Source of the DNA: Bacillota bacterium | Lineage (GTDB): Bacteria > Bacillota > Clostridia > Ch29 | Direction: 5' to 3' | Length of the DNA stretch: 64,000 bases | NCBI GenBank assembly: GCA_013540605.1 | Contig: JABVCK010000029.1 | Coordinates: forward strand, 62,001 to 126,000 | Shown here: in pieces, positions 17,184 through 21,958 of the stretch | How the letters are laid out: each line of letters starts with the position of its first letter | Numbering within the stretch: the stretch's first letter is position 1 | Translations under genes and position numbers: made by a program | Notes under the pieces: model-generated | Seen by the model: only the letters and a program-made list of their open reading frames with translations | What the model was told of the DNA's origin: nothing | The model's database searches: none

Positions 17184-17224
17184 CACAGTGATGGTTGTAG
17201 ACTATAATAGTTTTAAAATGCATA

Positions 17225-17475
17225 TCAAGGTGATGATGGGAAGAGTAGTTGGCCTGTGGTGTACAGGAAAGGGAGGTCGTGACTGAGAACCTTCCGACAC
17301 TTTTGAGCCTGCGAAGGACGACCCGGAGCCTACCGGTTGAAGTCGCAGTAAGCCGGTACGCGGGAAGCGTTAAATTCCACAGAGTGGGGTAGCTTAAGCT
17401 ATTCAAGCAGGGTGGCAACGCGGGAAAAATCTCGTCCCTGATGACATACTATTAATGTCATTGGGGTTTTTTAAT
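17225..17475 (+). promoter_or_regulatory. T-box riboswitch of hisS-aspS
   Basis: T-box core AGGGTGGCAACGCGG (17409-17423), terminator gatgacat-actatta-atgtcatt-ggggtttttt, then hisS; candidate specifier GACAC at 17296-17300. Confidence 0.88.
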
Positions 17476-20576: not shown

Positions 20577-20782
20577 GATATAGATCGCAGTCGGCAGATC
20601 GCAGATGTAGATTGCAGGTGCTAGGTACTAGGTGCTAGATTACAAATAACAGATGATAGATCACAGACGTCAGGGAAATGCTTATGGGGAAATCTGTAAG
20701 CCTTGCTCTGGTAACTGTGATCTGTGATCTGTGAACTGTGATCCAGGACCTTGCAACTGCCAACTGCTGACTGATACGATGG
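20577..20782. repeat. intergenic word-repeat/inverted-repeat element, copy A
   Basis: Left arm atatagatcgcagtcggcagatcgcag...gattgcaggtgctaggtactaggtgctag...gatcacag; right arm ctgtgatctgtgatctgtgaactgtgatccaggaccttgcaactgccaactgctgactg is its imperfect reverse complement. Confidence 0.75.
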
Positions 20783-21292
20783 TCACTGGCCGCCGATAGT
20801 GTCCGGTTCTTTATCTGTGTATACCCTTTTATCGTGTTTGACTGCCTTGAGAATTATCTCTTTAATTCTCTCAACCTCATCCTTTATTTCTACCAATTCC
20901 TCCCTGGATACGTTATAATATAGAAATAGGTCCTCCACGTTTCTTACAGAAGCGCTGAGACTTTTGGTGATATCCAAAAACAGGCTGAAATTTTTGCTTT
21001 TTGTCGCGTTTTCAAACTGCTCCACGTCGATTTTTATTATATCAACTACTTCTTCTTCGGTATGAAAGGTTCCGCCTGGTGTTAGGTAAGGCTTTATTCT
21101 TTCCAGGTAGTAATCGTTGCGCTTGTCAATTCGGTACAGATATACAAGTTTGAGGTCATCCAGCTGAAACTTGACAAAGAACATTACACCCTGGACTTCA
21201 ATGACTTCGGCCCCCATCTCCCGCAGCTGCTTAAGGCACAGCTCATGGCGTATTTGCCGTGTTGAAATAAAAGGCATTTGAACACCCCGCAT
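20783..21292 (-). CDS. hypothetical protein
   Basis: 169 aa ORF with coding character; start may be 21277. Confidence 0.6.
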
Positions 21293-21417
21293 TATGCATA
21301 CTACTATAAATTATATTATTTTTAACCATCCATTATTTATTCTTAACCATGTTATATTTAAATGAATGTGGGTATTCTAAAACATAGGTGGAATAATCAA
21401 TAATCAGGAGGGATATC

Positions 21418-21648
21418 ATGAACAGAGTTGTAGTGTATACCACCAGCACATGACCCCATTGTGTTACTGCGAAAGAGTATCTTTCGAGGAAAGGCGTCGA
21501 CTATGAAGAGAAAAATGTGCAGAAGGATGCGGATGCGAGAAAAGAGCTTATGCAAAGAGGCATAATGGCGGTGCCTGTAATCGCCATAGACGATGAATTC
21601 ATCGTTGGATTTGATAAGTCGAGGCTGGAGGAGAAACTAGAATCATAA
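21418..21648 (+). CDS. selenocysteine-containing glutaredoxin-like protein (UGA-encoded Sec in a UxxC motif)
   Basis: Absent from ORF track. RBS aggaggg, ATG 21418; [12 protein letters not shown](TGA 21451-21453)[64 protein letters not shown]. cis-Pro VPVI and GF motif; TGA sits at the first redox Cys. Confidence 0.88.
21470..21486 (+). promoter_or_regulatory. candidate bacterial SECIS hairpin
   Basis: CGAAAGA-GTA-TCTTTCG: 7-bp perfect stem, 3-nt loop starting with G; loop G is 24 nt after the UGA. Confidence 0.8.
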
Positions 21649-21774: not shown

Positions 21775-21958
21775 CGAGGAGCAACCCTGCTGTGTACGTG
21801 ACTACGGTTAGTTTTGAGCCAACACCATGACATAGGGATCTGAACTCTGGACGTGGCGCATAAGCCTTCACTGAGAGGACATGTAAAGCTTCCAGGAGGA
21901 GCCCACCTGCGATAGCGCAGGTTCAAAACAACCGACCACGGCATAGTGGGGGTTTTTT
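21775..21958 (+). ncRNA. ssrS: 6S RNA
   Basis: ggttagttttgagcc pairs with ggttcaaaacaacc; outer stem ccctgctgtg/catagtgggg; T-run; lies between aspS and tcdA as B. subtilis bsrA does. Confidence 0.82.

What the first reader, a model, noticed from the sequence alone, without database searches (positions are those of the whole stretch)
21418..21648. Unannotated selenoprotein: glutaredoxin-like gene with in-frame UGA at the catalytic Cys (UxxC) and a SECIS-like hairpin
Seen directly: a strong RBS (aggaggg), ATG 21418, then TTST-TGA-PHC followed by an uninterrupted thioredoxin-fold reading frame to TAA 21648. The hairpin CGAAAGA-GTA-TCTTTCG starts 16 nt after the UGA, and the first loop base is G. 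Established: bacterial SECIS elements are short stem-loops just 3' of the UGA with a G early in a small loop, and Sec replaces the first Cys in several glutaredoxin-like proteins of clostridia. A normal ORF caller would split or drop this gene, as the supplied track did.
Basis: partly seen in the sequence, partly recalled or inferred. Interest (0 to 1): 0.88.

Follow-up and report, generated by a model that had tools for sequence, protein, structure and literature searches.

The report
Selenium-containing glutaredoxin gene in a clostridium-like bacterium
The stop codon inside this small gene is almost certainly read as selenocysteine, giving a selenium-containing glutaredoxin; it is a sound catch that gene callers tend to miss, but the kind of protein is already known from related clostridia.

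Summary
Observation confirmed, interpretation supported. Window 21418-21648 is a 76-residue glutaredoxin (PF00462, E 1.6e-20) whose first active-site residue is an in-frame UGA at 21451-21453 (UPHC). The genome encodes selA, selB, selD and tRNA-Sec, and has in-frame UGA in two further known selenoproteins, SelD and GrdA. Homologues in the same family, Anaerosolibacter and Alkaliphilus also carry UGA here, while others carry a Cys codon: the classic Sec/Cys pairing. As a single sequence the hairpin is not remarkable (z = -1.0), but comparison rescues it. Nine Sec genes, the window included, keep the same 7-8 bp stem with loop GUA, 23 nt after the UGA, with one compensatory change, although synonymous sites are otherwise saturated or nearly so. 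None of nine close Cys genes keeps it; two more distant Sec genes use other hairpins. The closest characterised protein is selenoprotein glutaredoxin 1 of Clostridium (Alkaliphilus) oremlandii. One difference: this genome lacks a detectable MsrA, the proposed partner there, and the glutathione-synthesis genes searched, so the physiological donor and client are open. A new member of a known kind. Sec insertion is inferred, not shown.

The parts
21406..21412 (+). Shine-Dalgarno sequence AGGAGGG, 5 nt before the ATG
   Evidence: Read directly; similar G-rich sequences precede the Sec homologues
21418..21648 (+). Gene for a 76-aa Sec-containing glutaredoxin (UPHC active site), ATG to TAA
   Evidence: Translation with TGA=U; PF00462 E 1.6e-20; TIGR02196 87 bits against cut-off 88.55; PDB 7c10 E 1.5e-28; purifying selection after the UGA
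21451..21453 (+). In-frame UGA, codon 12, read as selenocysteine (catalytic position)
   Evidence: UGA or Cys codon at the same column in homologues; UGA is also used as an ordinary stop by window genes
21460..21462 (+). Resolving Cys codon (TGT, C15 of UPHC)
   Evidence: Translation; invariant residue among the Sec homologues
21470..21486 (+). Bacterial SECIS hairpin: 7-bp upper stem CGAAAGA/UCUUUCG with loop GUA (21477-21479)
   Evidence: Folds; same stem in 9 Sec genes and in none of 9 close Cys genes, compensatory C-G to U-A change in L018
21781..21956 (+). 6S RNA gene immediately downstream (context; not part of the selenoprotein)
   Evidence: Rfam RF00013, 100.5 bits; same order in relatives L009, L041-L043, L045

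Best explanation
The gene encodes a selenoprotein glutaredoxin. SelB with Sec-tRNA(Sec) recognises the hairpin just 3' of codon 12 and inserts selenocysteine at UGA 21451, so that the ribosome reads on to TAA 21648. In the protein, Sec12 is the attacking nucleophile of a UPHC motif: it attacks a disulfide or oxidised thiol on a client protein, and Cys15 resolves the mixed intermediate by forming a selenenylsulfide with Sec12. The oxidised redoxin is then re-reduced by a low-molecular-weight thiol or a flavoprotein reductase. Shown here: gene anatomy, homology, Sec/Cys pairing, conserved hairpin, Sec machinery in the genome. Inferred: actual Sec insertion, the redox chemistry, and the electron donor and client (MsrA and the glutathione-synthesis genes searched were not found, so a thioredoxin-reductase-type donor, another thiol or imported glutathione is possible).
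For: Frame and UGA; glutaredoxin domain spanning the UGA, E 1.6e-20; selenoprotein-aware NCBIfam models also match (Uxx-star NF041212, E 4.2e-16, below its cut-off). UGA at the same codon in five genomes of the same family and in Anaerosolibacter, Alkaliphilus and Thermohalobacter; Cys codons in Anaerovirgula, Geosporobacter and others. The hairpin meets the bSECIS limits of PMC13188914: 3-nt loop, G first, 23 nt spacing, best hairpin -9.2 kcal/mol. Stem conservation and codon freezing specific to the close Sec homologues. selA 612.6 bits, selB 377.6, selD 390.6, tRNA-Sec 70.7, with selA, selB and tRNA-Sec adjacent on one contig. In-frame UGA in SelD (Sec18) and GrdA. Conserved neighbourhood.
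Against: The hairpin is not exceptional as one sequence, and two more distant Sec homologues (L011, L020) lack this exact stem and would need other hairpins. The protein scores slightly below the curated NCBIfam cut-offs. No biochemical evidence. The sel genes lie on a different contig of an assembly with 2.5% estimated contamination.
Confidence: 0.96

Rival explanations
1. A decaying pseudogene: a Cys codon (TGC/TGT) mutated to the stop TGA and the rest is residual sequence.
For: A single base change links TGT/TGC and TGA, and Cys homologues exist.
Against: UGA is shared by genomes whose synonymous sites are saturated or nearly so while dN stays at 0.11-0.29 downstream; five genomes of the same family all have it and remain open; the hairpin is kept.
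Confidence: 0.02
2. UGA is decoded as another residue (a reassigned code with UGA=Trp/Gly, or near-cognate readthrough) and not as selenocysteine.
For: The reading frame continues past UGA; readthrough alone would give some full-length product.
Against: UGA ends several ordinary genes in the window, so the code is not reassigned; homologues have Cys and not Trp or Gly at the position; complete Sec machinery and other selenoproteins in the genome.
Confidence: 0.02
3. Sec is inserted, but the hairpin at 21470-21486 is not the functional SECIS, or only part of it (a longer or alternative structure is used).
For: Distant Sec homologues L011 and L020 lack the same stem; in the window the isolated stem is only 7 bp and its energy is not exceptional.
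Against: Stem conserved in nine Sec genes with near-invariant codons E20-Y21-L22-S23 and a compensatory change in L018, and absent in Cys genes.
Confidence: 0.1

Closest known systems
Selenoprotein glutaredoxin 1 (cGrx1) of Clostridium (Alkaliphilus) oremlandii OhILAs (PMC7642778); PDB 7C10, 7C12 and 7C13 taken to be this protein from the match and its date, not from a listed organism name
   Same: Same length class, UPHC active site with Sec first and a resolving Cys, about 45 of 72 aligned residues identical by my count of the alignment, same cis-Pro (AVP) and VGFD motifs; cGrx1 is a native selenoprotein according to PMC7642778.
   Different: Its proposed client is selenoprotein MsrA (PMC7642778, PMC4479559), which was not found in the window's genome; same-family relatives have an MsrA with no in-frame stop, or none.
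Glutaredoxin (Grx) selenoprotein family, PF00462, UxxC (table in PMC13188914; PMC1794560 lists it in Alkaliphilus metalliredigenes and Moorella thermoacetica)
   Same: Domain, motif and Sec position agree.
   Different: A member from a further genome, in a conserved aspS-gene-6S RNA-tcdA-glyA neighbourhood.
NCBIfam TIGR02196 YruB-family glutaredoxin-like protein
   Same: Best NCBIfam match, E 9.1e-25 over nearly the full length.
   Different: 1.5 bits below the curated cut-off when U is written as C.
NCBIfam NF041212 Uxx-star glutaredoxin-like (seleno)proteins
   Same: Sec-first glutaredoxin-like fold, E 4.2e-16.
   Different: Below cut-off (58.9 against 66); this one keeps the resolving Cys (UxxC).

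Membership tests
Glutaredoxin (PF00462) | Match to the curated domain model above its gathering score | tested here: met
   73.5 bits against 22.9, residues 4-62, whole profile
Glutaredoxin (PF00462) | C/UxxC active site and cis-Pro motif | tested here: met
   UPHC at 12-15 and AVP at 51-53, aligned with 7C10
Glutaredoxin (PF00462) | Reduction by glutathione in vivo | not testable with these tools
   No biochemistry; glutamate-cysteine ligase families PF04262 and PF04107 not found, TIGR01435 matched only over its C-terminal part and below cut-off
Bacterial selenoprotein | In-frame UGA with Cys or UGA at the same column in homologues | tested here: met
Bacterial selenoprotein | selA, selB, selD and tRNA-Sec in the genome | tested here: met
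Bacterial selenoprotein | SECIS hairpin: loop 3-9 nt, G in first two loop positions, 16-37 nt from UGA to loop, stem 4-16 bp, MFE at most -7.5 (PMC13188914) | tested here: met
   Loop GUA, 23 nt, 7-bp upper stem, -9.2 kcal/mol with the flanking helix; -7.5 for the 40 nt from the UGA, so it meets the energy limit only just
Bacterial selenoprotein | Selenocysteine present in the protein | not testable with these tools
   Needs 75Se labelling or mass spectrometry
TIGR02196 YruB-family | Score above curated cut-off | tested here: not met
   87 against 88.55 bits, with U written as C
NF041212 Uxx-star | Score above curated cut-off | tested here: not met
   58.9 against 66 bits
C. oremlandii cGrx1 / MsrA redox pair | Selenoprotein MsrA client in the same genome | tested here: not met
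   No TIGR00401 match in the genome, while 12 of 14 control genomes ring

The most novel reading that the evidence does not exclude
A Sec-glutaredoxin lineage kept without MsrA and perhaps without glutathione synthesis, so that it serves a different client and electron donor (for example a thioredoxin-reductase-like flavoprotein) from those proposed for C. oremlandii.
Probability: 0.4. Interest if true: 0.35.

Novelty: new member of a known kind. Interest (0 to 1): 0.22.

Why it matters
It is a correct selenoprotein call at a gene that standard stop-codon rules break, with a clean Sec/Cys comparison set and a SECIS element whose conservation tracks the UGA in near relatives. It adds a member to a known family and a case where the proposed client, MsrA, is absent, so the in vivo partner can be sought.

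Tried and rejected
The hairpin by itself as evidence: rejected, since shuffles and other UGA triplets do as well. My first free-fold test against synonymous recoding gave mixed values and mis-took some reverse-strand loci; the corrected in-register test is (one search had a register error in its last part; its codon table is sound). The scan does not list the site itself among its final nine; I did not trace which of its limits the site missed (an isolated 7-bp stem weaker than -7.0 kcal/mol is the likely reason), so that scan serves only as a measure of background. Pseudogene and reassigned code: rejected on selection and on UGA stops in the window. The two papers that first describe the C. 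oremlandii Sec-glutaredoxin and selenoproteome were not held. The tree rests on 77 columns and cannot settle whether Sec or Cys is ancestral. No structure prediction was run, since the fold is not in doubt.

Full report
What is there. The window at 21418-21648 holds AGGAGGG, ATG, in all 11 codons, UGA (21451-21453), then 64 sense codons and TAA. Reading UGA as U gives [76 protein letters not shown]. With C for U it matches Pfam glutaredoxin over the whole profile (E 1.6e-20), NCBIfam TIGR02196 (E 9.1e-25, 1.5 bits below its cut-off) and, more weakly, the Uxx-star selenoprotein models. The ordinary list of ORFs of at least 60 aa has nothing on this strand here, so the gene is easily dropped.

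Recoding machinery. The genome (3.35 Mb in 36 contigs, 99.55% complete, 2.5% contamination) has tRNA-Sec (70.7 bits, over the cut-off; confirmed by ARAGORN), selA (612.6 bits), selB (377.6 bits) and selD (390.6 bits). selA, selB and tRNA-Sec follow each other on contig C11, with selD a few kb upstream. SelD itself has an in-frame UGA (SSGUAAKVGP), and GrdA has one (ECFVU). UGA also ends normal genes in the window (4 of the 9 gene ends tallied), so the code is not reassigned.

Homologues. All five genomes of the same family that were searched have the gene with one in-frame TGA, at 76-79% identity. In the GTDB set, Anaerosolibacter (two), Alkaliphilus, Thermohalobacter and an unnamed Bacillota also have TGA at codon 12, while Anoxynatronum, Geosporobacter, Anaerovirgula, Clostridium hydrogeniformans and others have TGC or TGT. 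L009 and G001 carry an identical match and count once. Downstream of the UGA, against the window, dN is 0.11-0.29 while dS is above 1.5 or saturated, so the part after the stop is under purifying selection. In the same-family genomes and L009 the order is aspS, (a small divergent gene in some), this gene, 6S RNA, tcdA-like, glyA.

The hairpin. CGAAAGA-GUA-UCUUUCG lies 16 nt after the UGA, with the loop at 23 nt. It satisfies the published bSECIS limits (PMC13188914). Taken alone it is not significant (z -1.0), and 135 of 2131 UGA triplets in the window have some such hairpin of -7.0 kcal/mol or better. The comparison is what counts. In nine Sec genes (window, L041, L042, L043, L045, L009, L013, L019, L018) the same stem of 7-8 pairs with loop GUA is kept; for each, synonymous recoding with local codon usage reaches it in 0.3-1.4% of trials (these genes are related, so the values are not independent). 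Nine close Cys genes have 0-4 pairs in that register. Codons GAG-TAT-CTT are invariant in the nine Sec genes, while none of 18 conserved residues outside the hairpin region is codon-invariant. In L018 the pair C-G becomes U-A through GCG to GTG (Ala to Val) and TCG to TCA. Two more distant Sec genes (L011, L020) do not have this stem; other hairpins with an early loop G are predicted there.

How it works. Inference from the family: Sec12 attacks a client disulfide or sulfenic acid, Cys15 resolves, and a reductant restores the pair. In C. oremlandii the glutaredoxin cGrx1 is a native selenoprotein with a U(or C)PXC motif, proposed to reduce selenoprotein MsrA with glutathione as donor (PMC7642778; PMC4479559); the best PDB match, 7C10 (E 1.5e-28), is taken to be that protein. 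In the window's genome no MsrA was found, although 12 of 14 control genomes ring; two of the five same-family genomes also lack it, and three have one without an in-frame stop. No glutamate-cysteine ligase of PF04262 or PF04107 was found, and the GshF-type model matches only over its C-terminal part below cut-off. A thioredoxin reductase is present about 2 kb from grdA on the same contig. The donor and client are therefore open.

Novelty. Sec-glutaredoxins are an established bacterial selenoprotein family (PMC13188914; PMC1794560). This is a new member, well supported. A tree of 48 rows puts the window in a well-supported group of nine Sec genes plus one long-branched Cys row; at least three changes of the Sec/Cys label are forced by well-supported branches, direction unresolved.

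Noticed in passing
window 21781-21956: 6S RNA (RF00013, 100.5 bits) between the selenoprotein gene and a tcdA/HesA-like E1 gene; the order is conserved in relatives.
   Followed up: partly
window 17224-17442: T-box leader (RF00230, 101.7 bits) upstream of hisS-aspS.
   Followed up: no
window 20580-20790: Imperfect inverted repeat (71-nt arms, 70% complementary) made of short GATCACAG/GATCTGTG-like units between aspS and the next gene; the core unit pattern occurs only here in the window, far above chance.
   Followed up: partly
window 20783-21292, minus strand: 169-aa divergent gene without a Pfam match, present next to the Sec-glutaredoxin also in L009/L044 (69% identity) but not seen in L041-L043 and L045.
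   Followed up: partly
L072 and L074 (own genome, contig C9): grdA with an in-frame UGA, and a thioredoxin reductase about 2 kb away, suggesting a glycine-reductase gene cluster.
   Followed up: partly
L054, L068: More distant glutaredoxin-like genes in the same class with TGA at the catalytic position (UPWC and UPHC), probably further selenoproteins.
   Followed up: no
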